A DNA stretch of 30,457 nt, taken from the IMG/VR virus record IMGVR_UViG_3300031772_008885, positions 1 through 30,457 of that record, one strand, 5' to 3'. This stretch comes from a virus. This document shows positions 9,723 to 30,457 of the stretch, in pieces; position 1 is the first letter of the stretch, and each line of letters begins with the position of its first letter. Made by a program: the position numbers and the translations under genes. Under the pieces are notes generated by a model that ran no database searches, was not told where the DNA came from, and saw nothing but the letters and a program-made list of their open reading frames with translations.

Positions 9723-9837
9723 GCTTTGTGCACTCCATTAAATAATCGATTTTTGTTAACCACTTTTTTGACTTGAATTCTGTTTCCCATATCTCAATCA
9801 TTATATACCCAAGAGATTCAATCGTTTCTTTTCTTTT
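9715..9837 (-). pseudogene. Probable remnant of a Vsr-like (EDxHD-type) endonuclease C-terminus
   Basis: Between the stop of the nuclease gene (9838-9840) and the start of the intron-bearing glycosyltransferase, one minus frame stays open for 40 codons. It encodes ETIESLGYIMIEIWETEFK, then SKKWLTKIDYLMECTKHE and TAA. The shape 'helix - LGYxxIxIWExEF - helix' is what the C-terminal end of Vsr-like and related phage homing endonucleases looks like. There is no start codon before the conserved part, and the catalytic N-terminal portion is absent; the frame runs straight back into the TGA of the upstream nuclease. The stop overlaps the first codons of the glycosyltransferase, whose GGAG ribosome site lies inside this stretch. 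I read it as a stump of a free-standing homing endonuclease next to an intron. A chance open frame is the alternative. Confidence 0.4.
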
Positions 9838-10653: not shown

Positions 10654-10690
10654 GTTCCAATAATAACATGCTCATGCACATCAGTTCAAA

Positions 10691-12315: not shown

Positions 12316-12328
12316 GATGATTACAACA

Positions 12329-13342: not shown

Positions 13343-13343
13343 G

Positions 13344-13913: not shown

Positions 13914-13968
13914 TTCATTTTTCCAATATAACTAAAGTTAATCTACAAAGCCTTTGCATTGAGAATCT

Positions 13969-14580: not shown

Positions 14581-15155
14581 TGTGCTTTATTTACCAATTT
14601 CAGCTTGTCAATAGTATGAATCTTATCATATGAATTCAAGTTCTGATATTGAACATCTATTGATTCTTTGTCAAACAAAGTAGTATCAAGATATTTTTTA
14701 CCGCCTGTGCCTGCAATATACTTTGTTGCTCCGAGATCCTTACAAATTTGTACAAGACGCTCAGTCGAACGAAGTGTTGTCGGTTCGTCAAGAATTATCT
14801 TAGTATTGATTCCAAGTTGTAATGCAATTCGCTTGATAACGTTGTAATTTGTTTGCCATAGACTTTCTTCAATGTCTTGATCAAAATCATCAAGAAACTT
14901 ATTACATTGGCCTGTAATTTTTCGCTTGATCTTTGCCCAACCGTCATGTGGATTTACATAGCGTTTATCGTAAATTGATTCAATTCCTTGTTTGATAGGC
15001 ATTGTCATCCACTTGTCTTCATACTGAAAACGATTCTGGAATCCATTTTTCTCAAATTGACAGTGTCGTAGAATTACAAAAACATCGGCATCATTCATTT
15101 TCATGAAAAATGGCCACCATGGAAAGAAAGCTGGTTGGTGTATTGTAACGATCAT
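14577..15155 (-). CDS. WbqC-like protein of glycan biosynthesis
   Basis: 192 residues. The start MIVTIHQPAFFPWWPFFMKM plus DADVFVILRHCQFEKNGFQN matches WbqC family proteins (IHQPxFxPWxGFFxKIxxSDVFVxLDxVQF). These occur in O-antigen and other surface-glycan clusters, usually beside aminosugar or methyltransferase genes. The family's chemistry is not firmly established; acyl or amino-acid transfer to a sugar has been suggested. It is coupled to the FkbM gene (ATGA overlap) and lies 6 bases after the PIG-L deacetylase gene. The deacetylase-then-WbqC order would fit N-deacetylation followed by N-modification, which is inference. Confidence 0.8.
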   Translation of the reverse strand: MIVTIHQPAFFPWWPFFMKMNDADVFVILRHCQFEKNGFQNRFQYEDKWMTMPIKQGIESIYDKRYVNPHDGWAKIKRKITGQCNKFLDDFDQDIEESLWQTNYNVIKRIALQLGINTKIILDEPTTLRSTERLVQICKDLGATKYIAGTGGKKYLDTTLFDKESIDVQYQNLNSYDKIHTIDKLKLVNKAQ

Positions 15156-15161
15156 ATTGTC

Positions 15162-15842
15162 CTAGAATATAGATGTAGATCTAATCAGCATAAATGATTC
15201 AGCGTATTCTTGAGAACTTTCAATTCCCCTGTATCTTGCATGTGCCCTAATGCCTTTTTCACCAAGGAGATTTCTTTTTTCTTCTGTGTGCTGAACTTTG
15301 TATATATTTTTGAAGATGTCAATTTTGCTATCGATCTGTTTAGATATATCAACGTAGATATTCGGCTTGTAAATCAGATCAGGTCCACCCCATGTGCTAG
15401 TTGGAATTTCATATAGCAGTACATCTTGCATAGCTCTGTCACCATATGTTGGTCGGCATGCTGCAATTGATGTTTTATACACAATTTGATGCTCCTGATG
15501 ATAAGATGGTTCTGGGATGAAAATTGTAGTTGGCTTGAATCTCATTATTAATTTGTCAAGCCAGCGAATCACTTCATATGTTGGTTCTTGTTCAAGCCGC
15601 TTGTTTTCTGATGTTTGATACCATTCAGGTGATTCTGTTGAAAGAATGTTCGCAGAGTTAGCAAATTCTGCCCACTGTTCTTCTGAAGATACGACTCTAT
15701 TCAAATGAAATAAAAATCGAGGTGTACATGACATCACAGCTAGTTTAATCTGATCGCCGCGCTCTTTAAGTTTTAAAAGTGTTCCACCACAACCAAATAG
15801 TTCATCATCTGTATGTGGAGAAATTACTAATATTCTGCGCAT
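15162..15842 (-). CDS. PIG-L (LmbE-like) N-deacetylase
   Basis: 226 residues. MRRILVISPHTDDELFGCGG (residues 1-20) contains the P-H-x-D-D zinc and catalytic motif (H10, D12, D13) and the C-G-G-T that follows it. A second ligand region lies at PSYHQEHQIVYK, corresponding to the H-P-D-H of other family members. LmbE/PIG-L enzymes remove an acetyl group from GlcNAc-type sugars, on lipid carriers, mycothiol precursors or nucleotide sugars. The gene overlaps the upstream glycosyltransferase by 16 bases. In this cassette it would expose an amine on an amino sugar, perhaps for the WbqC-like protein. Family sure; substrate inferred. Confidence 0.88.
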   Translation of the reverse strand: MRRILVISPHTDDELFGCGGTLLKLKERGDQIKLAVMSCTPRFLFHLNRVVSSEEQWAEFANSANILSTESPEWYQTSENKRLEQEPTYEVIRWLDKLIMRFKPTTIFIPEPSYHQEHQIVYKTSIAACRPTYGDRAMQDVLLYEIPTSTWGGPDLIYKPNIYVDISKQIDSKIDIFKNIYKVQHTEEKRNLLGEKGIRAHARYRGIESSQEYAESFMLIRSTSIF

Positions 15843-16783
15843 CTAATGCCATCATAGATTGAATTCTGAATCTTGTATAAGACGTCTTTTGTTTTTGAGA
15901 TATCGAACGTCTTCATTGCTTCTCTATATTGTGCAATACGTCTATCAAGTTCGCTAGAATCAGACAAAATAGAATCTATTTGTTTTATTAAGACGTCATC
16001 TGAATCGTGTCTATTGATCACAATCATTGATTTAATTGCGTTGCTCGGCATATTTGAAGGATAATCACCAACAGGTAGAATGCCTGCATTTGCAAATTCA
16101 AGATATTTCATAACTAGCGAATCATCATCACCCGTACAGACAACACCGAGTTTAGCTTTTGATGCGAGCTCAATATATTTGTCTCCAAAATATTGATGGC
16201 TAGCATGCTGTTTAGAATGACCCGGATGTTGTATTTGACATATTCTGTATTTTGATCGATTAGCAATCAAGACTTCTGCCAATTTTGTTCTTGTGGGATA
16301 TGAATGATTTGACATTTGCCCACTAATGAACACATCATATGACTTACTTTCTGTAGGAACGTTAAACTCATTACTGAAGTCAATAAGATGTGGGTAATCT
16401 ATGCTGTTGATACCTTTTTCTGATAAGAACGATTTGTTAAATTCAGTGCAGTATGTTACAAGAATTGCTTCGAAACCCACACGCCCAAATATCTCTTGTT
16501 CTCGCTTGAATAAGATCCTGTCAGATTTACAACTGTCGATATTTCTCAGGAACTTTCTGCACTTTAACTCACTGAGAAGATCTAACCATACTTCATTTCT
16601 CGTGCCTATCCAGACGATAACAATGTCATCACGTTGAACAGTTGAATAGAATTTCTCGAAAAAATCACCTTGTGAACTACAAATCACTCCAAGCTTTTGT
16701 AGTGCTTGTGATGGTTTTTCCATCGTATGCACTGACATACTCTTCATATAAGCATCATCAGGAAATATTGCGTATATTGTCAT
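15827..16783 (-). CDS. Glycosyltransferase-like protein, CgeB/GT-B type
   Basis: 318 residues. The N-terminal half has alternating strands and helices (DIVIVWIGTRNEVW; RKFLRNIDS; AILVTYCTEF). The middle has SYDVFISGQMSNHSYPTRTK, the 'D-V-x-x-x-G-x...Y-P-x-R' segment of CgeB-like GT-B proteins. The C-terminal half has SKAKLGVVCTG and LVMKYLEFANAGILPVGDYP, the donor-side 'K-x-x-E-x-x-x-x-G-x-x-P-x-x' motif. The family (Glyco_trans_1_2/CgeB) transfers sugars; specificity is unknown. It is separated by 10 bases from the gene upstream and overlaps the deacetylase start by 16 bases. Confidence 0.72.
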   Translation of the reverse strand: MTIYAIFPDDAYMKSMSVHTMEKPSQALQKLGVICSSQGDFFEKFYSTVQRDDIVIVWIGTRNEVWLDLLSELKCRKFLRNIDSCKSDRILFKREQEIFGRVGFEAILVTYCTEFNKSFLSEKGINSIDYPHLIDFSNEFNVPTESKSYDVFISGQMSNHSYPTRTKLAEVLIANRSKYRICQIQHPGHSKQHASHQYFGDKYIELASKAKLGVVCTGDDDSLVMKYLEFANAGILPVGDYPSNMPSNAIKSMIVINRHDSDDVLIKQIDSILSDSSELDRRIAQYREAMKTFDISKTKDVLYKIQNSIYDGIRCAEY

Positions 16784-16793
16784 GGCTAGTTCT

Positions 16794-17984
16794 TTATCTG
16801 ATACATTCTACGAACTGATGCCATTTTTTCCAATAGTCAGTAGTAAAAAAGTCATCTTGCAATTGTTGAATACCTGTGCTAGCTTGATTAAAGAATTCAT
16901 TGTCTGTAATAAGACGAAATATTGCATCTCTCATTTGAGGAATCGTGTCACAGATAAATGTTCCTGGGCGCTTGATGTGATACTTGGTATAGTTGGAATT
17001 ATTTAAATAGGGTGACGTTGTTATGAATGGTGTTCCTGTCATCTGTGCATGAGCTGGTACTCCGCCTGCCCAGTCTAAGCCCTTAAGATGAACTACAGCA
17101 ATAGATTCGAGATACTTTTCACATGATCGTTTTGGACTTAATGTTTCAAAGTTTGATCCAGACGGACCTATACCTGTCGGTCCTCCTCGGCTAAAACGTA
17201 AATCTGCACCTACTCTGCGAATATTTCCACCATAATTAGTCAAAGTAATCCCTGCAGAAGAAAGCTCGCGCTGTAGAATCATGAAGAGCTCATAATAACC
17301 AGGATCTCTAACATGAAAATTATGCATGAAAGATGAAACCATCATGGGATTCCGCTTTATGTCGCGTCGGACATTTAAAAGATCAAGTTCAAAACTATTT
17401 CTGAACATGTGAAAGATGTTCTTTGATGTATCAGAAAACATGTTTTCGCATGGAGACGGAACAGATATACAGATATTCTCGGGATTCCACGGTGCCACAT
17501 GACATCGCTTTGGTGCATCTGCAGGATTTACACTTGATGTTACCCATTTTGCATTTGGCAATGTTTCTGCCGCCCATGGTAATAGGATGGGAAGCGCGTC
17601 TCGACAAAATTCTGTCGTGTGATAAACATCAATGTCTTTTCCAAGCGTCTTTAGGTCTTTCTCTGTGACTAATGTAACATGAGCAGGTCCTACGTAAGAT
17701 GATCCGATCAGTTCTTCTCGTTCTGATACAAGAAAATGATCTTCGCCAAATAAGACATCTTCTTCTTTCATTACATAGTCATCAAGATTTCTACATGTTG
17801 CTTCTGGGTGTGGCTTAAACAATAATCTCGTCCACATTGGCATTCTTGACCAATCATGCGATTCCTTAAATTCGCCCTGTTTAAGCATATACACATTACA
17901 GCCTGATGCTGCATAATGAAATGGCAGATTCATCGACTGTGATCTATTTGCATGATCATCAATAAGAATATTACGATTTTTCAT
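16794..17984 (-). CDS. Probable glycosyltransferase, GT-B-like, large
   Basis: 396 residues. It begins MKNRNILIDDHANRSQSMNL. The central part has MMVSSFMHNFHVRDPGYYEL. The C-terminal half has SIAVVHLKGLDWAGGVPAHA and QMTGTPFITTSPYLNNSNY: a helix and strand bearing G-G-V-P...G-T-P-F, which resembles the donor-binding loop of GT-B enzymes where a sequestered site precedes 'G-x-P-x-I/V'. There is no classic E-x7-E motif. Length and position between a methyltransferase and a transferase fit a glycosyltransferase, but the family is not certain. Its start (17984) overlaps the preceding stop (17981) by 4 bases. Confidence 0.62.
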   Translation of the reverse strand: MKNRNILIDDHANRSQSMNLPFHYAASGCNVYMLKQGEFKESHDWSRMPMWTRLLFKPHPEATCRNLDDYVMKEEDVLFGEDHFLVSEREELIGSSYVGPAHVTLVTEKDLKTLGKDIDVYHTTEFCRDALPILLPWAAETLPNAKWVTSSVNPADAPKRCHVAPWNPENICISVPSPCENMFSDTSKNIFHMFRNSFELDLLNVRRDIKRNPMMVSSFMHNFHVRDPGYYELFMILQRELSSAGITLTNYGGNIRRVGADLRFSRGGPTGIGPSGSNFETLSPKRSCEKYLESIAVVHLKGLDWAGGVPAHAQMTGTPFITTSPYLNNSNYTKYHIKRPGTFICDTIPQMRDAIFRLITDNEFFNQASTGIQQLQDDFFTTDYWKKWHQFVECIR

Positions 17985-18775
17985 TTCTTAATTGCAGAAA
18001 TTCTTTCAATTTCTGAGCCTCCAGGATGTGTTTGTGTTGAAATTGATTGAGGTTCAAATCCACTAAGAAGAAGCATTTGAAGTAAATCACCCTTTTCAAG
18101 TGCAATCAAATGACCGTAATTTAGTCTAGGCTGCCCTGGTTCAATTGGAATCTCTATGTGAATGAGACCGCCGGAATTCATTGATTCGCTAATATTTTTT
18201 AATGAATTTACTGGGTCATATGTGTGTTCGAGAACATGGTAGCAAATGACAATATCATGCTTTGATTCATTCTTGTGTTTGACATCATTTATGTCCCAAA
18301 TGCGACAGTCATACCCAAGTGATTTTCCAATTTGCACATTAATGTCAGAAATATCGTATCCGACAACTTGTTGAAACTTCAACTGATCAAGATAGTATTG
18401 AAGTAGATGAGGATTTCGAAATCCAATCTCGCAAAGAGAATCAGTCTTTACTCGAATTCCAATTTCTCCTAGACTTTTAATGATCGAATCGAGTTCATTG
18501 ATTCTCAATCTATCAGGAGCATCAATCTCAACAGCTGCCTGCTTAATTGATGATATATATGTTTCAAATGTTTGACCATCAGAGATTCCATTTCCTCTAG
18601 AATCCTGAAGATTCTTGTTAAATTCAATGTCGATTGGGACGTATGTATTACGTGTGCCAAATTGATATTGAATTGGCTTTAATTCAAAATTAGTTGTTGA
18701 ACGTATGTCTGACCAATTATTTGCGCCACGAAGCACAACTAGCTTTTCATATTCATTTTTGATTTCTTGATTCAT
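17981..18775 (-). CDS. SAM-dependent methyltransferase
   Basis: 264 residues from ATG 18775. A TTG at 18793 is in frame and would add six residues, but it overlaps the previous stop and has no ribosome site, so I prefer the ATG. Residues about 125-235 hold a class I methyltransferase core: SLCEIGFRNPHLL (motif I, a variant without the usual GxGxG), VVGYDISDIN, YDCRIWDIND, HDIVICYHVLEHTYDPVNSL (motif IV with H-V-L-E-H) and MNSGGLIHIEIPIE. The N-terminal 120 residues are mainly helical and not recognised. The H-V-L-E-H-x-x-D/N-P signature is common in sugar methyltransferases of surface-glycan clusters. Confidence 0.75.
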   Translation of the reverse strand: MNQEIKNEYEKLVVLRGANNWSDIRSTTNFELKPIQYQFGTRNTYVPIDIEFNKNLQDSRGNGISDGQTFETYISSIKQAAVEIDAPDRLRINELDSIIKSLGEIGIRVKTDSLCEIGFRNPHLLQYYLDQLKFQQVVGYDISDINVQIGKSLGYDCRIWDINDVKHKNESKHDIVICYHVLEHTYDPVNSLKNISESMNSGGLIHIEIPIEPGQPRLNYGHLIALEKGDLLQMLLLSGFEPQSISTQTHPGGSEIERISAIKK

Positions 18776-18779
18776 GATT

Positions 18780-19697
18780 TCAGATTCTTTCAAATAATTG
18801 TCGATATTGTTTGTAACCTAGAGGAAGCTTCAGATGATCTACATTTGGTATTTCTGGTATTGCATCAAAGACATTGTTACTGATTGCTGTCTGAGACAGA
18901 ACTTGATCTGCAATTCCAATGTTACGAGAAACAGTACGAATTCCAAGAAGTCCGCATTCAATAAGCGATTGTGGGCCACCTTCATAACGTGACGTTACAG
19001 GATAGATGTCTAAACACTGATACAATTCATTGATCGTAGTTTGTGTTGGTAATTCTATGTAAGTGTATGAAACACCAAGACACTTCAAGCCCTCAATTAC
19101 ATACTGACGACGCCAACCAGAAAGTAGCACATGTATTGGTAATTCATTATACCCGAAAAGTGAAGCACGATCTACGAAATCCAAGAAGAGATCAGGACCC
19201 TTTTCAAGCTTTGGGCTTTTTAAGTCATAGCCCTCTGTATCACGTTGAAAAGATCCGATTATGAATGAATCATTAGGAACATTATACTTGTTACGAAAAT
19301 CTTCTTTTTTCCCAGTCTTGTGCCATATTGAATCATTTGCCCAATACGGTATCATGTATATTGGTTTGTTAGTCAAGTTTTGAATTGATTCATGTGTGTA
19401 TTTATTTGGCACATGATATGCTGTTGTGAAAGAATCTCTTGCCCGAAAATCATCAAGTTCTGCAGAACCAAATTTCTCTGGGACAATGTGATGAACAGTT
19501 GTTATAACTTTCTTGTTGTCTAATAGACCTCGTGATGCAAGTTCTTTCCAGCACCAATCAGCATAAATCCAAATGATATCTGCAGTACGAGCATCTGTCG
19601 TGTTAATATCAGTGTTGTCGGCTCGCCACTCGTTGACAAAGCGGTCAACGATCCAACCTTCACCGGGTGGGTGAGCATAAACCAGCTTCTGTGACAT
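18780..19697 (-). CDS. Glycosyltransferase, GT4-like
   Basis: 305 residues. N-terminal half: KLVYAHPPGEGWIVDRF, DIIWIYADWCWKEL, VITTVHHIVPEKFG, then TAYHVPNKYT. The donor half begins FIIGSFQRDTEG and contains KGPDLFLDFV, and the donor motif is DIYPVTSRYEGGPQSLIECG, where E-G-G-P-x-x-x-x-E matches the GT4 E-x7-E pattern. It therefore binds a nucleotide-sugar donor as a retaining GT-B enzyme. It is coupled by overlap to the gene upstream (stop and start share a base at 19697). Acceptor unknown. Confidence 0.82.
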   Translation of the reverse strand: MSQKLVYAHPPGEGWIVDRFVNEWRADNTDINTTDARTADIIWIYADWCWKELASRGLLDNKKVITTVHHIVPEKFGSAELDDFRARDSFTTAYHVPNKYTHESIQNLTNKPIYMIPYWANDSIWHKTGKKEDFRNKYNVPNDSFIIGSFQRDTEGYDLKSPKLEKGPDLFLDFVDRASLFGYNELPIHVLLSGWRRQYVIEGLKCLGVSYTYIELPTQTTINELYQCLDIYPVTSRYEGGPQSLIECGLLGIRTVSRNIGIADQVLSQTAISNNVFDAIPEIPNVDHLKLPLGYKQYRQLFERI

Positions 19698-20641
19698 CAG
19701 ACTGTGTCTCCAATAATCTTTCTAAAAACGCTAAGGTAATCTGCAGCACATTTTTCAATAGATAAATCTGGATGTATTCCTAGCATTGCTCTGTTTGGCA
19801 GTGCAGAGACTATCTGATCAACATCTATCAATGGTGGATTATCGTAAAATGCAAGCTGAAAATCATACGGCACTGTTTCATTAAGAATGATTCCGTAGTC
19901 TCCGACGATTTCCTTTGTTCCTCCATCTGAGCTACAGATGACAGGAAGATCACAAGACAATGCTTCAACGACAGAATTTGGACAATGATCAAGCCATGCT
20001 GAATGAATCATCCAATCACTTGATTCAAATAATTGAAAACAAACATCATGCGGTTGATTTCCGACATTAAATATATGTTTATCTGTCGTTGGTGGTGTTC
20101 CCGCCCCTAAAATGAAAAGACACGAATTCGTGTAAAATTTACGAAGTTTCGTAAATATTCTGATGTTGTCACTAAGCCGTTTTTGTGGATGCCAATTTGC
20201 AGACGATACAAAAATTGTGTTGTATTTATTTCTAATTTCTGAGATTTGTTTTTCAATTACTTGTGATTTTTTGTAAGTCTTTGATGAACCGTTGCTGATC
20301 ACTGATCCTGCAACTGGATCGCCCCACCATTTTGTTATCATTTCACGATCAAAGTTTGATTGCCATATGACATGGTCTGCAGTAGAATATTGCTTTTTAA
20401 TCTCTAAGTTCCTACGATGAAAATCATCTGGGGAAAACCATATGCCGTCCAAGCGTTGTACAACTTTTTTTGCAAGACGATTGCCAGAAGCGCTTATGAA
20501 GACAAGTGAAATATCAGCAGAGCCTCCACTCCCTGTAAAAATTTCATGTCCTAATCTAGCAAATTCGTTTGACAACCTTGTTGCAAAGGTATTGGGTCCT
20601 GTTTGACTCAATAAGTTTACATTATCAAAGTGAATCTTCAT
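19697..20641 (-). CDS. Glycosyltransferase, GT4-like
   Basis: 314 residues. It starts MKIHFDNVNLLSQTGPNTFA, a clean strand plus the glycine-containing turn TGPNTFATRL of GT4 enzymes. VIWQSNFDREMI and VISNGSS mark the end of the first domain (the 'V-I-x-N-G' linker), followed by FVSSANWHPQKRL. The donor motif is HSAWLDHCPNSVVEALSCDL, then PVICSSDGGTKEIV, including C-P-N-S-x-x-E-A and the G-G-x-x-E/D loop. All expected parts are present, at a typical length for a short GT4. The upstream start overlaps a small unknown gene by 4 bases. Confidence 0.87.
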   Translation of the reverse strand: MKIHFDNVNLLSQTGPNTFATRLSNEFARLGHEIFTGSGGSADISLVFISASGNRLAKKVVQRLDGIWFSPDDFHRRNLEIKKQYSTADHVIWQSNFDREMITKWWGDPVAGSVISNGSSKTYKKSQVIEKQISEIRNKYNTIFVSSANWHPQKRLSDNIRIFTKLRKFYTNSCLFILGAGTPPTTDKHIFNVGNQPHDVCFQLFESSDWMIHSAWLDHCPNSVVEALSCDLPVICSSDGGTKEIVGDYGIILNETVPYDFQLAFYDNPPLIDVDQIVSALPNRAMLGIHPDLSIEKCAADYLSVFRKIIGDTV

Positions 20642-20997
20642 GATCTTTTCTTGATTTCAGACACAAAAAACGGCGCGAAAGGGGTGCCATTCATCATTGT
20701 TGCCATGAGGCCAAGTTCTTCTGTAGGAATGTTTCCTAGTGATGCTAGCTGTGTAAAAATATTTGGATCTAATTGCTGATTTGCATTAATAGTAACTGAG
20801 TCATAGTACATTTGAGACAGAAGATTAATTGATTCATTGCCAAGTGGAATTGACGATGTCTGTATTACTTCTTGAAGAGTACTAAAAATTTCACGATAGA
20901 TCGCTATGCAAGTTTGTGAATCTAATATCTCTTGTTTGTATTTTTTCAATCGATCTAAGAGAAGCTTTGTGATTGATTCATGGACATTTTTTATCAT
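20638..20997 (-). CDS. Small helical protein of unknown function inside the glycan cassette
   Basis: 119 residues, mainly helical with no membrane segment. It begins MIKNVHESITKLLLDRLKKY and ends NGTPFAPFFVSEIKKRS. A segment LDPNIFTQLASLGNIPTEEL followed by GLMATMM looks conserved. It overlaps the genes on both sides (4 bases downstream, 20 bases upstream), so it belongs to the same transcript. I do not recognise the family and see no catalytic motif; it may bridge or regulate the enzymes, or be an unrelated insertion. Confidence 0.72.
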   Translation of the reverse strand: MIKNVHESITKLLLDRLKKYKQEILDSQTCIAIYREIFSTLQEVIQTSSIPLGNESINLLSQMYYDSVTINANQQLDPNIFTQLASLGNIPTEELGLMATMMNGTPFAPFFVSEIKKRS

Positions 20998-21910
20998 ATG
21001 CTGTTACCTTTAGAAGATTGGCAAATTGATTGACACAATCTTCCCATGACACCAAGTATGACGTGTCGTTTGGAACATACGACTTTGACATGATTATGTT
21101 TAATAGTTCTTTAAAATTTGAATATGAATGTTCAATTCCTGCAAATTCAACACAACCTCCGCCTTCAGCGTGTACATATGTTGGAAGTCTAGTAGACATT
21201 GCTTCTAAGCAATGATTGGGTCCTGGGTCATGTCTGGAAGCTGAGATGTACACGTCGTACTTGCTCAATTCTAAACCTAGTGCTTTGCCAAAAAGTGGAG
21301 CTACTACTTTTGTATTTTTGAATGTACCTCTTTCACGCCCTATATACGTGAAAGAATAGTCAGGATTTGATCCGATCCAGCGATCAAGTTCATCATAGAT
21401 ATCGAAGCCTTTTTTTTCGTTATTTGACCAATGATGAGCTACAAGATTAATCTTGCCATTGTTAAGTTTCATTTCAGGTCGAGATTTATAAATGTCGAAA
21501 TCAACACCATTTCGAATGATATGAGATTTGAGATTGTCAGTTTTCTTGAAATATTGACTCAGCCAGCGAGAAACGTAGACAACAGAATCACAATGCTCAG
21601 CGATATTCAACACTTGAATATCTACGCCTGATGTTCCTTTGCGTGCATCATTTTCATTAACACGATATACAACAGGAATTTGTCGACTGAAGTTGTGGAA
21701 TATGTAATTTCGATATTCCAGCACATCATGAGCAGATGCACAGATTCCTTCTCTGCCAAGCCCAGCAATCATGATTATATCTGGCATATCAGTAAGGTCT
21801 GTTACTGGGTGAATATTGTGAGAAGGCAAAAAATCATACATGGCCTTAACCCATGCATTGCCTCCTCCCCACGGGCCATTTACAACTTGACGATTGATGT
21901 AGACTTTCAG
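20978..21910 (-). CDS. Glycosyltransferase, GT4-like, apparently starting at CTG
   Basis: 310 residues if the start is CTG at 21910. The first in-frame ATG is at 21841, but translation in frame upstream gives LKVYINRQVVNGPWGGGNAW and then VKA, which is the expected first strand and glycine-rich turn of this GT4 group (K-V-Y-x-N-R...G-P-W-G-G-G-N). The frame is closed by TAG four codons before the CTG, and no ATG, GTG or TTG lies in between. The CTG overlaps the stop of the FkbM gene (CTGA), mimicking the ATGA overlaps used elsewhere here. Later motifs: VVYRVNENDARKGTSGVD, HIIRNGVDFD, SRHDPGPNHCLEAMSTRLPT (E-A motif). The family is solid; the start is inferred. Confidence 0.78.
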   Translation of the reverse strand: MKVYINRQVVNGPWGGGNAWVKAMYDFLPSHNIHPVTDLTDMPDIIMIAGLGREGICASAHDVLEYRNYIFHNFSRQIPVVYRVNENDARKGTSGVDIQVLNIAEHCDSVVYVSRWLSQYFKKTDNLKSHIIRNGVDFDIYKSRPEMKLNNGKINLVAHHWSNNEKKGFDIYDELDRWIGSNPDYSFTYIGRERGTFKNTKVVAPLFGKALGLELSKYDVYISASRHDPGPNHCLEAMSTRLPTYVHAEGGGCVEFAGIEHSYSNFKELLNIIMSKSYVPNDTSYLVSWEDCVNQFANLLKVTAYDKKCP

Positions 21911-22500
21911 GGTAGAATCTTTCTAACCTCGTCAAAGACGTCGTTCTGCACCCAATCTGGGTTTAAGATAAGCAGACCTGCAAAATTACCCAATGATTTA
22001 TCCAAATCATAGTTATATTTTTTCCACACGTCAGCAGGCAAACAGAGCTTATTGTTCGGATGAGTGTCAAGCAACAAGACGTCTATCAATGAAAGCGAAC
22101 CGGCAGAGTCCATCTTACGAATGACTTCATACTCGGCACCCTCTATGTCGACTTTGAGTATCACAAAATCATCAGCACATACATTTTGTAATAGCCAAGT
22201 CGAAATGTCAATGCACGGTGTCATGACGATCTTTTCAAATTTTCCGGTCGTTTTTGTTAATATGCACGAGGAGCTATAGCCGGTAGATCCTGAATCAAAC
22301 TTGAATGCAAGTTCTCCATCGTCAATCCACACTAATACTTTGTTATGCTGCACAGCATAGTGCTTCGTTGCTAGATCATGATCGAATCTATCATTAGGTT
22401 CAAAACTGATGACCTCGAATCCATTGTCGGGCACGAGTTCAAAAAATCGATCTGTGATCTCTCCTTTGTTGGCGCCTAAATCAACAAATACTTTTCTCAT
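21907..22500 (-). CDS. FkbM-family methyltransferase (second of two)
   Basis: 197 residues. Signature parts: MRKVFVDLGANKGEITDRFF (SAM motif I), VISFEPNDRFD (E-P-N), and FVILKVDIEGAEYEVIRKM (K-x-D-I-E-G-x-E). The C-terminus LIDVLLLDTHPNNK replaces the E-x-H seen in other FkbM proteins with D-T-H. The gene starts with an ATGA overlap after the GT2 gene and ends in a CTGA overlap with the next gene. The predicted role is O-methylation of a sugar in the glycan, inferred from the family. Confidence 0.86.
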   Translation of the reverse strand: MRKVFVDLGANKGEITDRFFELVPDNGFEVISFEPNDRFDHDLATKHYAVQHNKVLVWIDDGELAFKFDSGSTGYSSSCILTKTTGKFEKIVMTPCIDISTWLLQNVCADDFVILKVDIEGAEYEVIRKMDSAGSLSLIDVLLLDTHPNNKLCLPADVWKKYNYDLDKSLGNFAGLLILNPDWVQNDVFDEVRKILP

Positions 22501-23246
22501 TGTACAAATCCTCGAGATCTAAGAAATAAAGCTTCATCACGTTGAAAGACTGCATCATTTGTTTGATATGTCTCCGGAACGTCTTTGATTGTATAGTGAT
22601 ACATGCAGCGAGGTAGAAAAGCTCTTCTTTTTGCTTTGTGCAACACTGGAAGATATATAGCCTGATCTCCGGCCCTTCTTATGTAGTTTCCGTCTTCACC
22701 TCTAAAATTTTCATCTTTCACACCATTGATCAGATGTTTTCGAAATGTCTTCAGGTGACTTGCTACCCATGGATGTCGATAAGGATCTGCATTATCGTCC
22801 ATTGGGCCGCTGATGTTTTTATCGGAGAATGACCACCTATGCATCGTCCAGAGAGCATCACATTGTAGTTGCTCATATGATGCATCTAATATTGGCAGTG
22901 TATCAATATCAGTCAACCAGTCATCTGCATCAATTCTACAAATGATATCATCGTCTTCACACTGTGATATTCCATGCAGAACATTTGAGACTTCCCATTG
23001 CTTGCCTCTTCCCTCATCTTCATTCCATACAATGCTTATCTTATTAGGATTTTTATCTGTACGATCAAGCAATTCCTGAAATCCGTGTATGATTCGTTTG
23101 CTCTTTTCAACTTCTTCAGGTGATGAGACATCATCAATCAATATCAGACGCCAATTTTCATAAGATTGACCACAAATTGAGTGCAACATTCGACTCAAGT
23201 GTTGTGAAGCATTATACATTGGAGCAACGAATACGAATTTACTCAT
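22497..23246 (-). CDS. Glycosyltransferase family 2 (GT-A)
   Basis: 249 residues. It begins MSKFVFVAPMYNASQHLSRM, then LHSICGQSYENWRLILIDDV: the GT2 start, with Q-S-Y-x-N-W/x-E and a strand ending in I-D-D (D38-D39). The metal-binding D-x-D is RIDADDW at residues 104-110, with D106 and D108/D109. The C-terminal region has FRGEDGNYIRRAGDQAIYLP, likely the acceptor side with the E-D-x-x catalytic base. Full-length GT-A. It overlaps both neighbours by 4 bases. Confidence 0.86.
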   Translation of the reverse strand: MSKFVFVAPMYNASQHLSRMLHSICGQSYENWRLILIDDVSSPEEVEKSKRIIHGFQELLDRTDKNPNKISIVWNEDEGRGKQWEVSNVLHGISQCEDDDIICRIDADDWLTDIDTLPILDASYEQLQCDALWTMHRWSFSDKNISGPMDDNADPYRHPWVASHLKTFRKHLINGVKDENFRGEDGNYIRRAGDQAIYLPVLHKAKRRAFLPRCMYHYTIKDVPETYQTNDAVFQRDEALFLRSRGFVQ

Positions 23247-24148
23247 ATGACTTCTGCTACTGGGCCCTCCTGAATAATAGATGATTGTGGATACTTCATC
23301 TGATCGCCATTTAGATCTGTCTTATAGCTCCAACCAAGTGGTTTGGCAACATTAATAAATCCAGAAGGCCCATTAGAACTTTGTAGTTTATTGTAAACAT
23401 CAGATGACATATGTTCATAATATGTGTCATATCCGTGCATGACAGGAAGATAATGACCATATCGTTTGTTTGCTCGCAAGAATGAATAGTGGCCGCGTGG
23501 ATCATTCCACACACCTACAAAAACGGGAGTGTGAACAAAACCTGCAATATTATGGTTCTTTCCATAATGTCTAATCACTCGTTCATGGTAATCATCCTCT
23601 CCTCTACCCCAATACTCCTTTGTGATAGGATACGATTGAGAATATGGGCCAATGATATCAAACACTTCTTTTCTATGAATTCCAATTGTTCCGAAATGAT
23701 TGTCTCGAACCTGCCAGATATTTTTGACTCTAAATCCTGAAAGTTGCGATTGAAGTGTAGACATTCTGACACCGGTGATTGCTACATTCAAAAATCCCGA
23801 TTCATTGACATCATCGACAACAGACTTAAGATAACCTGCAGGGCCTACATATTGTAGATCATCCTGAAGGAAGATATATGACTGACAGTTGTACTTGTCG
23901 GCGCAATGTGAGATAAATGCATTTTTTGCCTTGTATTCGTCATTTATCCAATCGCCACCAGGCAGGCGGAGGATTGTAATTTCCGCAAACTTCTCCCATT
24001 TTTCGAGAACAGAAGCCATGTTTTGTTCAGTTGATCCATTATCACAAACGATAATATCAAAATCGATCAATTCATATTGTAGTGACGCAAGTAAAGAATC
24101 AAGATAGAATGATCTATTGTATGAGATGATGCAGATTGGCGTCTTCAT
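23243..24148 (-). CDS. Glycosyltransferase, GT2-like (GT-A)
   Basis: 301 residues. It starts MKTPICIISYNRSFYLDSLL, with DIIVCDNGST in the second strand region (GT2 D-N-G/S-S pattern). The metal site is YIFLQDDLQYVGP (D96, D97). The C-terminal part has GRGEDDYHERVIRHYG, a likely acceptor or base motif (G-E-D-D). It ends shortly after PQSSIIQEGPVAEVI. The gene lies 10 bases downstream of the fusion transferase and overlaps the next GT2 by 4 bases. Donor unknown. Confidence 0.8.
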   Translation of the reverse strand: MKTPICIISYNRSFYLDSLLASLQYELIDFDIIVCDNGSTEQNMASVLEKWEKFAEITILRLPGGDWINDEYKAKNAFISHCADKYNCQSYIFLQDDLQYVGPAGYLKSVVDDVNESGFLNVAITGVRMSTLQSQLSGFRVKNIWQVRDNHFGTIGIHRKEVFDIIGPYSQSYPITKEYWGRGEDDYHERVIRHYGKNHNIAGFVHTPVFVGVWNDPRGHYSFLRANKRYGHYLPVMHGYDTYYEHMSSDVYNKLQSSNGPSGFINVAKPLGWSYKTDLNGDQMKYPQSSIIQEGPVAEVI

Positions 24149-24158
24149 TTGATTAATC

Positions 24159-26165
24159 TTACAGCATTATTGCCGGCTGTGTTTTTCTTATTGACATGTG
24201 AGGAATTCGCTGACCTTTCCATTTAGAATGCCAGATCCAGCCACCTGTTTCGGCTTTTAGTTTTTTTGCAAGATCAGAAATCATATCTTCGCTAACTTGT
24301 GACCACGGAAGATCAAACATCATATTAGATTCTGCCGTATCAGCCTGTGATTTATTATGCAAAGAATTCCAGTGCTTTGTCCAATAATCTCGATACAAGC
24401 GAATTTTTCTTGTCATATCGAACCATGAATAATGATAAACACCGGGTAATTGTTCAATTGCAGCATTGAACCAAGCTTGATAATCTTCTGTAGAAGAAGC
24501 ACCTGTAATAGCAGCTCTTCTTAGATTTTCTGTTTCTTCTGTATGAAAAGTTATATGAGGTAACCTTTCAAAAGTTTCATTGTGAATCATGTCACATCCG
24601 TCAGTTCCTTCTGAAGCGTATAGCAATCCATTCTCATCAGATCTACGAAGATCTCTAGGTATGCCGTGTGTTATATATGGAAGATTTCTGCTTAGACGCC
24701 ATTTCCACGGCTGAATATCGATTCGAATCTTTTCTTGTCCTCCCCAATATTCTACTACTGGTAATGCGAGTATTGTGACGTCTTTTGGCAATTTAGAACA
24801 GAGTGACAAGATCTTATTCGCATCATCTTCATGAACAATTTCGTCGCTGTCCATTTGCCAACAAAACTCTGACGTGCACATTAATCTAGCTGCTGCCTTT
24901 TGCATGCCATCAAAAACTGCATGTCTTGGATGCGACCAATCACGTTTAATAAATTGAAGTTTAACTTTTGTTTTTTCAAGCTTAGACTGATGTGGTGAAC
25001 AACCAATAGCACGAAGATCTTCTATTAACGCAATGTGTTCAGCGTAAGAAAGCTTTTGTTCTGCATCAGGATATGCCAAATCGACAAGTTTATCCCACGT
25101 TTTATCTGTTGATCCTCCGTCGACAATGCATACTTCATCACAAAATGTCAGCATTGACTTTATCGATTGTATGTATGGATAATGTTGATTGATGCAATTG
25201 TAAGTCGTTAAATAACCTGATATTTTTGGCTTGTATTCCATGATGTGTCTTATGCCATTCCAAAATACACTTGGAACTGTAAAAAGATAATCATAGATTG
25301 AATCGATTGAGCCTGTAAACCATTCCTCATCTTTGTGCTGTACATTGCTATTTATGATTAGATCACAACCTAACAATTTAGCTTCTATAATCATTCTTGG
25401 GCATGTATCAGCGCCTGGAGGTAAGTAAATTAGACCTGTAGCAAGTGACAATTTTTCTAGGAATTGTTTATACGAGAGATTTCCTACAAGCTCATAATCT
25501 TTGTTGTTATCAACACACCATTTTATTGCCTGAGCAGTTCCCTTGATCCAAGAATGTGAGCTAAAAATCAACCACTTGCCTAGTTCGTTTCCTGATGAGA
25601 TGAATTTCTGCCTGGCAGCAGAAAATAATCGTAATGTTCCTAGCGTTTCCTTGTCAAAAACGCTGGATAGGACTATGTTATCTTTTTCCCTAAGAAATGG
25701 GAACATAGTCATGTAGCGTTCTTTTTGTTTCTCTGACATCCACCAAAGAGATGTTGCTCTGTAGTAAAATGCTGATATCATCTTCCCTGTCATATCCTCA
25801 TGACAGTCACACGGAGAACCAGAAGCAGAGGCATGTTTTTCTGGTGATCTATACTTGCAGAACTTATAGTCGTACTCTAGAACAGCATATTTTAGATTGC
25901 CAATGATCGATGGAATTAGTTCTGCATTTAGTTGAGAAAAATTTCCAAATATCCAAAATTTATCAGCTCCCTGCATAAGTGTTGAGAGATTTACATCTGC
26001 AGATAAAATTTTCTGGATCTTATATGGTGATTCTTTGATTAACGCTTCTGTAGTTAGTTCAGCTCCCCCGCCGTACTGTTCTACAAATGCGTCTGCTACA
26101 AAAATTATTTGTGCGTCTGCTACTGTCTGTATGGGATTAAAAAATACTTTGTCGCTATGATTCAT
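24159..26165 (-). CDS. Two-domain glycosyltransferase: N-terminal GT-B-like, C-terminal GT2-like
   Basis: 668 residues, first gene of the leftward unit. N-terminal domain (about 18-305): IIFVADAFVEQYGGGAELTT is the opening strand plus glycine turn of GT4-type enzymes, WLIFSSHSWIKGTAQAIKW starts the donor half, and YLPPGADTCPRMIIEAKLLG gives the E-A donor motif. C-terminal domain (about 313-560): KISGYLTTYNCINQHYPYIQ, CDEVCIVDGGSTDKTWDKL (V-D-G-G-S-T-D-x-T) and QMDSDEIVHEDD (D-x-D at 439-441) mark a GT-A/GT2 fold. It could add two sugars in sequence. GAGG lies four bases before the ATG. No stop or frameshift divides the domains. Confidence 0.82.
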   Translation of the reverse strand: MNHSDKVFFNPIQTVADAQIIFVADAFVEQYGGGAELTTEALIKESPYKIQKILSADVNLSTLMQGADKFWIFGNFSQLNAELIPSIIGNLKYAVLEYDYKFCKYRSPEKHASASGSPCDCHEDMTGKMISAFYYRATSLWWMSEKQKERYMTMFPFLREKDNIVLSSVFDKETLGTLRLFSAARQKFISSGNELGKWLIFSSHSWIKGTAQAIKWCVDNNKDYELVGNLSYKQFLEKLSLATGLIYLPPGADTCPRMIIEAKLLGCDLIINSNVQHKDEEWFTGSIDSIYDYLFTVPSVFWNGIRHIMEYKPKISGYLTTYNCINQHYPYIQSIKSMLTFCDEVCIVDGGSTDKTWDKLVDLAYPDAEQKLSYAEHIALIEDLRAIGCSPHQSKLEKTKVKLQFIKRDWSHPRHAVFDGMQKAAARLMCTSEFCWQMDSDEIVHEDDANKILSLCSKLPKDVTILALPVVEYWGGQEKIRIDIQPWKWRLSRNLPYITHGIPRDLRRSDENGLLYASEGTDGCDMIHNETFERLPHITFHTEETENLRRAAITGASSTEDYQAWFNAAIEQLPGVYHYSWFDMTRKIRLYRDYWTKHWNSLHNKSQADTAESNMMFDLPWSQVSEDMISDLAKKLKAETGGWIWHSKWKGQRIPHMSIRKTQPAIML

Positions 26166-26320: not shown

Positions 26321-26836
26321 ATGAAAAAAAGCATTCCCGGTTCAGCCCAGAAACGTTTGTCAAAACCTACAGTGCCTAATGAAAACATTTCTGACATGTT
26401 TCACAAGCTACAAAAATCTTCTATACTGGATGGAGGATTTGATATTCTTCTTCATAAAATTGACAATATTGAACAGAGTCAGGGTCAGCTTGTTGCTAAA
26501 GTAGATAAAATTCATGATGCAATTTATGACGTCGACACAGGTTTATTTTCTAAATTAACAGAACACAAAATCGAATCACTTGAACGACTTAACACACTTT
26601 CTCAGAATATTACTTCACTTTCAGAATGGAAAAAACATCGCGAAAATGCAGAGACAAAAAATGACAGTGAAATTGAATCAGCAACAAACAAAATAGTTGT
26701 GATAGAAAAAACAATTGAGCATCTAGAAAGATATAAAAATACTGTGTGGTCGATCATAAAATGGATTTCTGCTGCAGCAGCAGGCGGTGCCTTGACGTTT
26801 TTATTCAAATGGCTTGAAGTTTCTTTTAAATTTTGA
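26321..26836 (+). CDS. Coiled-coil protein with C-terminal membrane anchor (holin/XhlA-like shape)
   Basis: 171 residues from the ATG at 26321, which has GGAG six bases before it; earlier in-frame codons (TTG 26309, ATG 26315) overlap that site and are less likely. A long helical, heptad-rich middle (HKIDNIEQSQGQLVAKVDKI; ATNKIVVIEKTIEHLERYKN) leads to a hydrophobic C-terminal helix (IIKWISAAAAGGALTFLF) and a short charged tail. Coiled coil plus C-terminal membrane helix is the shape of XhlA-type and similar phage membrane proteins linked to lysis, but also of envelope tethers. There are no lysis genes nearby to settle it. It is the first gene of the rightward unit and overlaps the next frame by 23 bases. 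Confidence 0.72.
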   Translation: MKKSIPGSAQKRLSKPTVPNENISDMFHKLQKSSILDGGFDILLHKIDNIEQSQGQLVAKVDKIHDAIYDVDTGLFSKLTEHKIESLERLNTLSQNITSLSEWKKHRENAETKNDSEIESATNKIVVIEKTIEHLERYKNTVWSIIKWISAAAAGGALTFLFKWLEVSFKF

Positions 26837-28013
26837 CTTGTATGAAATTTCGTTTTATTATCACAGAGTGAATCATCTAGACGTTACATTCATCGAAACA
26901 CAAAATTTTATCAAATCCAACTTACCAGTGAAATTATCGTTGGATGTTTCAATGCGTCTTAAGCGCGGCTTGCAACATTTTCTAAGCATTCAACCGCAAG
27001 AAGACAAAATACGAGCGTTGTACAAGCTTGTTATAGTTCATGCAACAAAATCTGAAGTTGCATGTCCTACATCAGGTTTGATTTTTTTGAAATTATTCGC
27101 AGGTAACAGCTTAGAAACATCAGATCAGGCAACATTGAGTAGCAAAATGATTTTAGAATCATTTCGAAAGTCTGACTACGATCGAAAGATAATCGATATT
27201 CTAACAACAACGTTGTTATTAGTGTCAGCTAGCACAAAAATATCAATCAAAAAATCGACTTCGAACAAGTCTTACATTGAATTAGTTGACGGTTACAGTT
27301 TCAATTGTAAGCCTTTGATGTTTATCAAACCAACTGAACTATCACGAGCAAAAGTAGTTTGCATAGATGGCTTTATAGAATCTGTTTCAGAAATTCATCA
27401 TCTTTTAGAACACTTGGCTTTAACAAAAATACCGTGTCTCTTATTCTCAAGAGGAATGTCCAATGATGTCTTACACACATTGAAAGTAAATAACGACAGA
27501 CAATCGTTAATTGCACTGCCCTATGTAGTACCATTTGACCCAGAAAATGTAAATGTGCTTGTTGATTTGGCAGTCGTATGTGGAACTGACGTATCATCCA
27601 GTCATAAGGGCAGTTTGATTTCTTCGATACAGCTGGATGACGTACCATTTGTTGATAAAATCACATTGTCTGGTACTTCGATTAGCATAAAAAATGAATC
27701 AACAAAAAAACGGACTCATGATCACATTAAGCATCTGAATGAAGTTCTAATTGAAAGACCAGAAATAGATTCAATTTTGTCTTCGAGGCTTAAATCATTG
27801 TCTTCTTCATGTATAGACATAGCAATCCCAGATGATATTGATTTTTTTCGGTTATCAAGTCAGCTCGATGAGGGCCTTAGAATAATCCGAACACTTTCTT
27901 CATCAGCTTATGATCCTTTTAAAACTGCATCTGATTTTCTAGATTCATTTATGAAGCTATGTAAAGAACTTTCGCTATCTACATTTATTTACTCTTCTTG
28001 TCAATCAGTGTAG
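26814..28013 (+). CDS. Divergent GroEL/Cpn60-like protein (intermediate and apical domains recognisable)
   Basis: Up to 399 residues from a TTG at 26814; GTG at 26868 (residue 19) is another possible start. Residues 143-230 follow the GroEL order: ISIKKSTSNKSYIELVDGYS fits 'I-T-V-E-D-x...E-L-x-x-V-E-G', MFIKPTE fits 'Y-F-I-x-x-P-E', AKVVCIDGFIESVSEI fits the 'LLxDKKIxxIxEM' helix, and KIPCLLFSRGMSNDVLHTL fits 'K-P-L-L-I-I-A-E-D-V-E-x-E-A-L-x-T-L'. Residues 299-365 match the second intermediate segment (helix, RLKSLSSSCIDIAIP, then LDEGLRIIRTL like 'R-x-E-D-A-L-x-A-T-R'). The GDGTTT nucleotide motif is absent and the protein is about 150 residues shorter than GroEL, so ATP use is doubtful. Assignment is by pattern; a structure comparison is needed. 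Confidence 0.5.
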   Translation: MKFLLNFDLYEISFYYHRVNHLDVTFIETQNFIKSNLPVKLSLDVSMRLKRGLQHFLSIQPQEDKIRALYKLVIVHATKSEVACPTSGLIFLKLFAGNSLETSDQATLSSKMILESFRKSDYDRKIIDILTTTLLLVSASTKISIKKSTSNKSYIELVDGYSFNCKPLMFIKPTELSRAKVVCIDGFIESVSEIHHLLEHLALTKIPCLLFSRGMSNDVLHTLKVNNDRQSLIALPYVVPFDPENVNVLVDLAVVCGTDVSSSHKGSLISSIQLDDVPFVDKITLSGTSISIKNESTKKRTHDHIKHLNEVLIERPEIDSILSSRLKSLSSSCIDIAIPDDIDFFRLSSQLDEGLRIIRTLSSSAYDPFKTASDFLDSFMKLCKELSLSTFIYSSCQSV

Positions 28014-28742: not shown

Positions 28743-28994
28743 ATGGAAGATACTAAACTTTACGGAAATTTGAAATCAGAGAAGCTTGTTGAAGAGAGCA
28801 TACGTGCACATCAAATAGTAAGTGAGATTGGAAACTTTGGAATAAATGATAGACAGCGTTGGCTTGTAATCTACTATCTTGCACTTGAATTAGAGAATAT
28901 TGATAAGATGCAAGAGCTTACTAGCTGCATAAAAGAACTCAATGGAAATGATCTTTTCGTATCAAAAATTTTTAGTAACGAAACGGAGGCATAA
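28743..28994 (+). CDS. Small hypothetical protein
   Basis: 83 residues, helical and acidic (KLVEESIRAHQIVSEIGNFG; QRWLVIYYLALELENIDKMQ). No motif recognised. The stop shares a base with the ATG of the ClpP gene (TAATG), so the two are probably translated together; a role as ClpP partner is conceivable but unsupported. Confidence 0.65.
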   Translation: MEDTKLYGNLKSEKLVEESIRAHQIVSEIGNFGINDRQRWLVIYYLALELENIDKMQELTSCIKELNGNDLFVSKIFSNETEA

Positions 28995-29602
28995 TGGGAC
29001 GTTCAACAGCACGATATGAGGCTAGTGATAATACAAACAAATCATCTCAAATGCATTCTTCTGAAGCTCAATCACATACATCAGGAGATGTTCGTCTTAT
29101 AATTTTGAATGGTGATGTTACTGAAGATTCAATTTCAATGATAGTTGGTCAGATGTTACATTTAGCTTCAGTCAATCACGATCCTATTAATTTGATTATA
29201 TCGACATACGGTGGTTCAGTTGACGAAATGTTTGCATTATATGATACGATCAAATTTTTACCATGCCCAGTACATACTGTAGCAATAGGCAAAGTAATGT
29301 CAGCTGGTGTGCTTCTTCTCGCTGCAGGCAAGAAGGGAAAACGTATGATAGGAAAGTCTGCTCGTATCATGATACATCCGGTATCAGGAGGTGCATACGG
29401 CAATGTTTTTCAAATGGTAAATGATGCTAGCGAACATAATCGCCTTCAGAATCAGATGGTAGATGCAATCGTAAGAGAATCAAAAGCTTCAAAGGATCAA
29501 CTTTTGAAGATTATGAAAACAGGACATGATGTGTATATTTTGCCTGAAGAAGCACTTCGTTTAGGTTTAGTAGACAAGATTATGGGTGATATCGTAAAGT
29601 AA
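28994..29602 (+). CDS. clpP: ClpP-like serine protease
   Basis: 202 residues, the usual ClpP length. The core begins LIILNGDVTEDSISMIVGQM. LIISTYGGSVDEMFALYDTI has the G-G-S-V oxyanion region. The catalytic triad is Ser103 (GKVMSAGVLLLAAG), His128 (ARIMIHPVSGG) and probably Asp179 (GHDVYILPEEALRLGLVDKI). The first 30 residues are polar and rich in Ser, with no recognisable propeptide cut site. ClpP forms a 14-subunit chamber and needs a Clp ATPase to unfold substrates; none is encoded in this window, so it may use the host's ClpX/ClpA or act as a virion maturation protease. GGAGG-like GGAG lies seven to eight bases before the ATG (CGGAGGCATAATG). Confidence 0.92.
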   Translation: MGRSTARYEASDNTNKSSQMHSSEAQSHTSGDVRLIILNGDVTEDSISMIVGQMLHLASVNHDPINLIISTYGGSVDEMFALYDTIKFLPCPVHTVAIGKVMSAGVLLLAAGKKGKRMIGKSARIMIHPVSGGAYGNVFQMVNDASEHNRLQNQMVDAIVRESKASKDQLLKIMKTGHDVYILPEEALRLGLVDKIMGDIVK

Positions 29603-29644: not shown

Positions 29645-30457
29645 ATGCCTTTACATGAATATGTGAAATATTTTCCTTTTCCAAAGATCAGAGATGAACA
29701 AAGGCGAGCAATTGAATTTGCTTTAGATTCATACGAATCAGGAAAAAAGATCGTTCTTCTAGAAATGGGGACGGGTACAGGGAAATCCGCCACAGCAATT
29801 GCAATTGCTAGATATATGGAGGCACATGCGCCTCCAATCAAAGATGAAGATACCGGACTTCAGTTTTCTGGTGCTTACATTCTTACAACACAAAAATTAT
29901 TGCAAAATCAATATTTTAATGATTTTGGACCTCCTTCAGGTAAGAATCTTCTTAGGACAATAAAGTCGTCTACGAACTATAAGTGTAAATTCTATGAAGA
30001 TCAGACATGTGCAGAGTCAAAAAGGATGCTTTCAAAGCTTGGTAAGGCGCTTAATGGCACAGAGTTCCAAAAGCAGTGTAAGAGCAGCTGCACGTATTCA
30101 TTAGAAAAACAGGATTTTATTGAATCACCTATCTCTATAACGAATTTTTCGTATTTTCTGGCAGAAACCACGTATGCTGGCAAGCTTGAACCAAGAGCAC
30201 TTCTTGTAGTTGATGAGTGTCTTCGTGACGATGCAAAGATATTAATTGATATTGGACTAGAATGTTCAATAGGTGAGATTTACAAAAATCACAATATCAC
30301 ACATGTCATGTCATATAATCAAGAAAACGATTCTTATGAAAGAAAAAGAATCGTCCGTCGTGTTAGAATGCCTTATGAAAAAGATACTGTGTGGTATGAA
30401 ATAACAGCTTCTTCTAGCAATTTTGAAACTAAGATTACTGTTACAGATAATCATAAA
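29645..30457 (+). CDS. XPD/DinG-type SF2 DNA helicase with Fe-S cysteines, interrupted by an intein (3' end cut by window edge)
   Basis: 271 codons visible from ATG 29645; the host helicase part is residues 1-191. FPFPKIRDEQRRAIEFALDS is the Q-motif region (YFPxPxIRxxQ). GTGTGKS (42-48) is Walker A. Four cysteines C114, C122, C145 and C149 (YKCKFYEDQTC; QCKSSC) are spaced like the Fe-S cluster ligands of XPD, DinG and Rad3. VISITNFSYFL-type strand SPISITNFSYFLAE leads to LLVVDE (186-191), motif II, where an intein begins at Cys192. Helicases of this group unwind 5'-3' using ATP. The remaining motifs III-VI and the second half of the intein lie beyond the right edge. A gap of 42 bases after clpP holds nothing I can name. 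Confidence 0.85.
   Translation, partial: MPLHEYVKYFPFPKIRDEQRRAIEFALDSYESGKKIVLLEMGTGTGKSATAIAIARYMEAHAPPIKDEDTGLQFSGAYILTTQKLLQNQYFNDFGPPSGKNLLRTIKSSTNYKCKFYEDQTCAESKRMLSKLGKALNGTEFQKQCKSSCTYSLEKQDFIESPISITNFSYFLAETTYAGKLEPRALLVVDECLRDDAKILIDIGLECSIGEIYKNHNITHVMSYNQENDSYERKRIVRRVRMPYEKDTVWYEITASSSNFETKITVTDNHK
30218..30457 (+). other. Intein N-terminal region, inserted at helicase motif II (incomplete)
   Basis: 80 residues, starting at Cys192 of the reading frame. Block A reads CLRDDAKILIDIGLECSIGE, matching C-L-x-x-D-T/A-x-I/V...G-x-x-x-x-I-G/x-E. Next comes VMSYNQENDSYERKRIVRR, the 'V-x-S-Y-D/N-x-E-x' strand found after block A. Block B is KITVTDNHK with the T-x-x-H pair (T76, H79 of the intein). 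The first residue is Cys, a class 1 nucleophile. The helicase sequence LLVVDE breaks off exactly where the C/A/G-H of the D-E-x-H box should follow, and the new sequence has no helicase likeness. Whether a homing endonuclease domain is present cannot be seen. Confidence 0.85.

What the first reader, a model, noticed from the sequence alone, without database searches (positions are those of the whole stretch)
30218..30457. Intein at the DEAH-box of an Fe-S helicase
The sequence switches from helicase (LLVVDE) to clear intein blocks A and B. Insertion right after the D-E of motif II breaks the ATPase centre, so the helicase is dead until the intein is removed. Inteins at ATP-binding motifs are a known theme, but a case in an XPD/DinG-like phage helicase is worth recording. 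With the group I intron it gives two different self-removing elements within 21 kb.
Basis: partly seen in the sequence, partly recalled or inferred. Interest (0 to 1): 0.75.

Follow-up and report, generated by a model that had tools for sequence, protein, structure and literature searches.

The report
Intein in a phage helicase DECH-box
A self-removing protein segment (intein) sits exactly in the ATP-hydrolysis motif of a giant-phage DNA helicase; the window holds only its first 80 residues, but a second contig, probably from the same phage, holds its end with an endonuclease-like domain of a kind seldom reported inside inteins.

Summary
Window 29645-30217 encodes the first 191 residues of an XPD/DinG-like Fe-S helicase. 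At 30218 the frame passes, without a break, into 80 residues that score above the curated cut-off of the intein N-terminal model TIGR01445 (Cys1, block B TDNH), and the record ends there. About 73 intein-free relatives show the empty site: DE|CHN in 32 and DE|AHN in 41. The host motif here is therefore almost certainly DECH, with Cys as the +1 nucleophile, not DEAH. The C-terminal half is absent from the window. However, an IMG/VR contig (L048) begins inside an intein at the same junction: ...NHNYFANSILVSN|CHNTE. Its base composition and co-divergence fit the window better than any other relative, so it is probably the right-hand neighbour. Its intein contains a zinc-ribbon-plus-Vsr/EDxHD-like endonuclease domain, not LAGLIDADG; no HNH family matched. 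Inteins at ATPase centres, including Walker B and helicase RecA domains, are known. The same motif II junction also carries an apparently split intein in Bacillus phage G. I rate this a new member of a known kind. The possible new variant is the Vsr-like endonuclease fused in frame within the intein. Splicing and homing are inferred, not shown.

The parts
29645..30217 (+). N-extein: first 191 residues of an XPD/DinG-like Fe-S helicase (Walker A GTGTGKS, four Fe-S cysteines C114, C122, C145, C149, motif II LLVVDE)
   Evidence: phrog_2488 E 9e-33; rad3 TIGR00604 weak match; 66-81% identity to intein-free relatives with all four cysteines invariant; a relative matches XPD structures
30218..30457 (+). 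N-terminal 80 residues of an intein: block A CLRDDAKILIDIG with Cys1, block B ITVTDNH; cut off by the end of the record
   Evidence: TIGR01445 27.3 bits over cut-off 24.5, profile positions 1-80 of 83; absent from all relatives that span the site except L048; G+C 30.8% against 37.9% for the N-extein
30209..30220 (+). insertion junction V-D-E|C; empty site DE|CHN or DE|AHN in relatives
28994..29602 (+). ClpP-like protease gene directly upstream; conserved neighbour of this helicase in relatives
   Evidence: PF00574 E 7.6e-38; tblastn next to the helicase in the relatives

Best explanation
It is a class 1 cis-splicing intein inserted between Glu and Cys of the DECH-box (motif II, Walker B) of a giant-phage XPD/DinG-like Fe-S helicase. 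Its N-terminal 80 residues close the window. Its C-terminal 252 residues are most likely those at the start of contig IMGVR_UViG_3300037137_003002 (L048), or those of a close allele. Inferred mechanism: Cys1 attacks the peptide bond after Glu191 with help from the block B TxxH motif; Cys+1 of CHN takes over the acyl group; the terminal Asn of ...LVSN cyclises; and the exteins join as LLVVDECHN, restoring the helicase. The endonuclease domain in L048 would cut intein-free DECHN alleles and drive homing. Shown by sequence: insertion point, intein N-terminal blocks, empty sites, and a same-site C-terminal intein end in a second contig. Inferred: that L048 and the window are one genome, splicing activity, endonuclease activity, and silence of the helicase before splicing.
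For: TIGR01445 above cut-off on the window. TIGR01443 intein_Cterm 28.2 bits against cut-off 15.6 on L048. The L048 frame is continuous from contig base 1 through ...HNYFANSILVSN|CHNTEAELGKF. About 73 distinct contigs have the intact motif. Linkage of L048 to the window: highest tetranucleotide correlation of 117 loci (0.908; next 0.825); 0.94 for the whole 20 kb record, against 0.90-0.91 for 10 kb hold-out pieces of the window; best match for the window's N-extein divergence profile among 41 C-exteins (0.790 against 0.783); best downstream partner in a matched 5.4 kb test; near-equal intein G+C (30.8% and 30.3%).
Against: The window ends in block B, so blocks F and G and the +1 residue of this copy are not seen. 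No contig bridges the window end and L048, and the sample of the window is unknown. In controls the composition test ranks the true partner first in only 30 of 53 cases. The co-divergence margin over the second-best contig is very small. L048 has Ser, not His, before the terminal Asn, which may slow Asn cyclisation. AlphaFold models of both halves failed (pLDDT 42 and 37), so there is no structural support.
Confidence: 0.9

Rival explanations
1. It is a split (trans-splicing) intein: the helicase gene is fractured and the window carries only the IntN half with a stop soon after the record ends, as in Bacillus phage G gp221/gp223.
For: Phage G has two separate ORFs, gp221 ending in an intein N-half after ...MIMFDE|CLSYDS and gp223 starting with an intein C-half ...ENTLVHN|CHHLPS, at the same motif II junction of a different helicase.
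Against: The L048 frame runs unbroken through endonuclease, IntC and C-extein from contig base 1, so at least its last 252 intein residues are fused in cis; the window frame has no stop.
Confidence: 0.07
2. The window and L048 are different phages that carry unrelated inteins at the same site; the window intein may be a mini-intein or have another endonuclease.
For: No overlap between the two contigs; this family has many members and the site is a natural hotspot.
Against: Composition and co-divergence both single out L048; apart from L048 none of about 73 contigs has an intein there.
Confidence: 0.25
3. Assembly chimera or decayed intein: the intein sequence was joined to the helicase by misassembly, or no longer splices.
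For: Both known copies end or begin at contig edges inside the intein, and no intact copy was seen.
Against: The junction is exactly at a legal site (E|C, +1 Cys in the nearest clade), in frame, with intact Cys1 and TxxH, and is mirrored independently by the L048 C-terminal junction.
Confidence: 0.04

Closest known systems
Inteins in ATPase centres of phage proteins: TerL inteins of mycobacteriophages, including TerL1-e in Walker B (PMC5050341)
   Same: Phage intein in the catalytic motif of a P-loop ATPase; TerL1-e also lies in Walker B
   Different: Terminase, not an SF2 Fe-S helicase
Intein in aLhr2 helicases of archaea (PMC8301817)
   Same: SF2 helicase RecA domains interrupted by inteins
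   Different: Archaeal Lhr-type helicases, LAGLIDADG endonuclease; position relative to motif II not stated in the passages read
Bacillus phage G gp221/gp223 intein (JN638751)
   Same: Inserted after DE of motif II, DE|CHH, in a giant-phage SF2 helicase
   Different: Different helicase (ResIII, XPB-like C-terminal domain), apparently split in two genes, 29% identity over IntN with E 0.2
EDxHD/Vsr-like homing endonucleases (I-Bth0305I; outgroup described in phage group II introns, PMC12350094)
   Same: The L048 intein endonuclease has the LEQ...PDF...WH pattern and aligns with such a protein of LR745208 (hhalign score 42.1, shuffle maximum 23.6)
   Different: Those known to me lie in introns, free-standing genes or, from memory of Dassa et al. 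2009, between split-gene halves; here it is fused in frame within an intein

Membership tests
Intein (class 1) | In-frame interruption of a conserved protein whose relatives lack it | tested here: met
   About 73 relatives uninterrupted at DE|CHN or DE|AHN
Intein (class 1) | Block A with Cys/Ser at position 1 | tested here: met
   Cys192, TIGR01445 from profile position 1
Intein (class 1) | Block B TxxH | tested here: met
   TDNH at the end of the window
Intein (class 1) | Blocks F/G ending (H)N followed by Cys/Ser/Thr | tested here: inconclusive
   Not in the window. Met in contig L048 with ...VSN|C, Ser in place of His; TIGR01443 28.2 bits
Intein (class 1) | Self-splicing activity | not testable with these tools
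   Needs expression
XPD/DinG-like Fe-S helicase (host) | SF2 motifs and four Fe-S cysteines | tested here: met
   C114, C122, C145, C149 invariant in A1; the intact relative L001 matches XPD chains, E about 1e-4
EDxHD/Vsr-like homing endonuclease (L048 intein) | E-D-x-H-D residues in a Vsr-like fold | tested here: inconclusive
   E (LEQ), D (PDF) and H (WH) present, last D replaced by E in the alignment with LR745208. Direct match to E. coli Vsr not above shuffles (8 of 120 reach it); match to the LR745208 protein far above shuffles, and that protein scores 34.7 against Vsr (no shuffle control). No Pfam match; fold model failed
LAGLIDADG or HNH homing endonuclease | Family profile match in the intein | tested here: not met
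   No Pfam, NCBIfam or PHROGs endonuclease match in L048 1-756; cannot be tested in the window itself

The most novel reading that the evidence does not exclude
The intein that begins in this window is a large cis intein whose embedded homing endonuclease is a zinc-ribbon plus Vsr/EDxHD-like nuclease fused in frame between the splicing halves, a third endonuclease type in inteins beside LAGLIDADG and HNH. The motif II E|C junction of SF2 helicases would also be a recurrent intein target across unrelated giant-phage helicases.
Probability: 0.5. Interest if true: 0.6.

Novelty: new member of a known kind. Interest (0 to 1): 0.42.

Why it matters
It puts an intein exactly in the DECH-box of an XPD-type Fe-S helicase, where protein splicing would act as an on-switch for the ATPase. 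The family offers a natural experiment: relatives with DECH can accept a Cys+1 intein, and relatives with DEAH cannot. If the endonuclease reading holds, it widens the set of endonucleases known to ride in inteins.

Tried and rejected
Extension of the record: impossible, the window is the whole record. Close relatives of the 80-residue intein in viral contigs: none. Relatives of the L048 intein: only itself. Exact-match bridging of the two contig ends: none. Relatives of the helicase in bacterial and archaeal genomes: none. PDB sequence search with the intein N-part: none. AlphaFold models of both intein halves: too poor to use, so no fold search was made. L041 first looked like a near-identical neighbour (98% over 40 residues), but its site is intact. 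Considered and rejected: helicase continuing in another frame.

Full report
What is in the sequence. The window is one complete viral record of 30457 bases, so it cannot be extended. The last ORF, 29645-30457 on the + strand, is open at its 3' end. Its first 191 residues match the phage DNA helicase family phrog_2488 (E 9e-33, match ends at residue 192), with weaker matches to ResIII and rad3. The alignment with relatives at 66-81% identity keeps Walker A and four cysteines (C114, C122, C145, C149) invariant. An intact relative matches XPD chains in the PDB. This supports an XPD/DinG-like Fe-S helicase.

The switch. After LLVVDE the frame goes on as CLRDDAKILIDIGLECSIGEIYKN...FETKITVTDNHK. These 80 residues match TIGR01445 (intein N-terminal splicing region), positions 1-80 of 83, at 27.3 bits against a curated cut-off of 24.5. 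Cys1 and the block B TxxH motif are present. No other frame continues the helicase. G+C drops from 37.9% in the N-extein to 30.8% in the intein, and at third positions from 29.8% to 20%.

Empty sites. Scans of IMG/VR with the N-extein and with the C-extein gave about 73 distinct contigs in which the same gene runs through the site unbroken. My count is 32 with DE|CHN and 41 with DE|AHN or DE|AHT. The nearest relatives (L001, L012, L013, L014) are all DECHN. So the intein lies between Glu and the residue that becomes +1, and in this clade that residue is Cys, the required kind of nucleophile. 'DEAH-box' in the finding should read DECH-box. The ClpP gene upstream is a conserved neighbour.

The other half. 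One contig of the C-extein scan, IMGVR_UViG_3300037137_003002 (L048, 20129 bases), starts inside an intein and runs without a stop through ...TDHYKYNIEVEDNHNYFANSILVSN into CHNTEAELGKFIEVTFSEKF. TIGR01443 (intein C-terminal region) scores 28.2 bits, cut-off 15.6. The penultimate residue is Ser, not the usual His. There is no overlap with the window.

Are they one phage? L048 has the highest tetranucleotide correlation with the window of 117 loci (0.908; next 0.825). The whole L048 record gives 0.94, compared with 0.90-0.91 for 10 kb hold-out pieces of the window itself. Among 41 C-exteins its divergence profile is the best match to that of the window's N-extein, though only just (0.790 against 0.783). 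In controls the true partner ranked first in 26 of 40 cases. In a matched 5.4 kb test it again ranks first; controls put the true partner first in 30 of 53 cases. Intein G+C is 30.8% and 30.3%. I take it as probable (about 0.7) that they are two pieces of the same or a very close genome, with a gap in the middle of the intein. It is not proved.

The endonuclease. L048 residues 1-252 have no Pfam or PHROGs endonuclease match. A stretch KVPNTLEQSV...LVFTG...KNPDFIIEGTNKVVEVGDVYFWHTEQEIEETIKLYSEIGYECLYLTNKEIEE aligns with a 487-residue ORF of a metagenomic phage (LR745208; hhalign score 42.1, E 5e-6; best of 120 shuffles 23.6). That ORF scores 34.7 against E. coli Vsr (no shuffle control run for that pair), whereas the L048 stretch alone does not rise above shuffles against Vsr. 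Upstream lie a CxxxxC...CxxxC ribbon and an NPMF motif that look like NUMOD-type DNA-binding parts (by eye). EDxHD/Vsr-like homing endonucleases are known in phage introns (PMC3943268, PMC12350094). In the searches made here I found no report of one embedded in an intein, but the library lacks most subscription papers, so this is a lead, not a claim.

Mechanism. Inferred from intein chemistry: N-S acyl shift at Cys1, transfer to Cys+1, Asn cyclisation, and ligation to LLVVDECHN. Motif II Asp-Glu coordinate Mg and activate water, so the unspliced precursor should lack ATPase activity. Endonuclease-driven homing into DECHN alleles would explain a sporadic distribution (L048 and the window among about 75 contigs).

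Known context. Inteins favour ATPase centres; mycobacteriophage terminase inteins include one in Walker B (PMC5050341), and archaeal aLhr2 helicases carry inteins in RecA domains (PMC8301817). Bacillus phage G shows the same junction, DE|CHH, in another SF2 helicase, with intein halves on two ORFs, gp221 and gp223. The finding is thus a new member of a known kind. Its possible extra value is the endonuclease type and the recurrence of the site.

Noticed in passing
window 9418-9749 (-): Group I intron (RF00028, 62 bits) without a large ORF. It appears to interrupt a glycosyltransferase near its start: MNKKTILMLSDHP upstream and STSGVGTQARW downstream.
   Followed up: partly
L010 2371-5003 (Bacillus phage G gp221-gp223): Apparently split intein at DE|CHH of a ResIII/XPB-like helicase, IntN on gp221 and IntC on gp223, with gp222 between; annotated only as helicase pieces.
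   Followed up: partly
L009 1141-3954 (Salicola phage SCTP-2 gp4): A contiguous mini-intein (about 155 residues, Pfam Intein_splicing) inside a tail-fibre-like protein annotated as hypothetical.
   Followed up: partly
L122 14524-15396 and 17548-18660: Two free-standing homing-endonuclease-like genes downstream in the L048 record: GIY-YIG with NUMOD3, and a zinc-ribbon protein with a TnsA-like PD-(D/E)XK domain.
   Followed up: partly
L012 about 2670-3990: An extra ORF between ClpP and the helicase in this relative; its start looks like an ADP-ribosyltransferase/RNA phosphotransferase fold by eye.
   Followed up: no
window 7035-26165 (-): Long run of glycosyltransferases and methyltransferases (capsule-like sugar genes) in a phage record, plus a GroEL-like ORF at 26814-28013 (+) (phrog_5725).
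   Followed up: no
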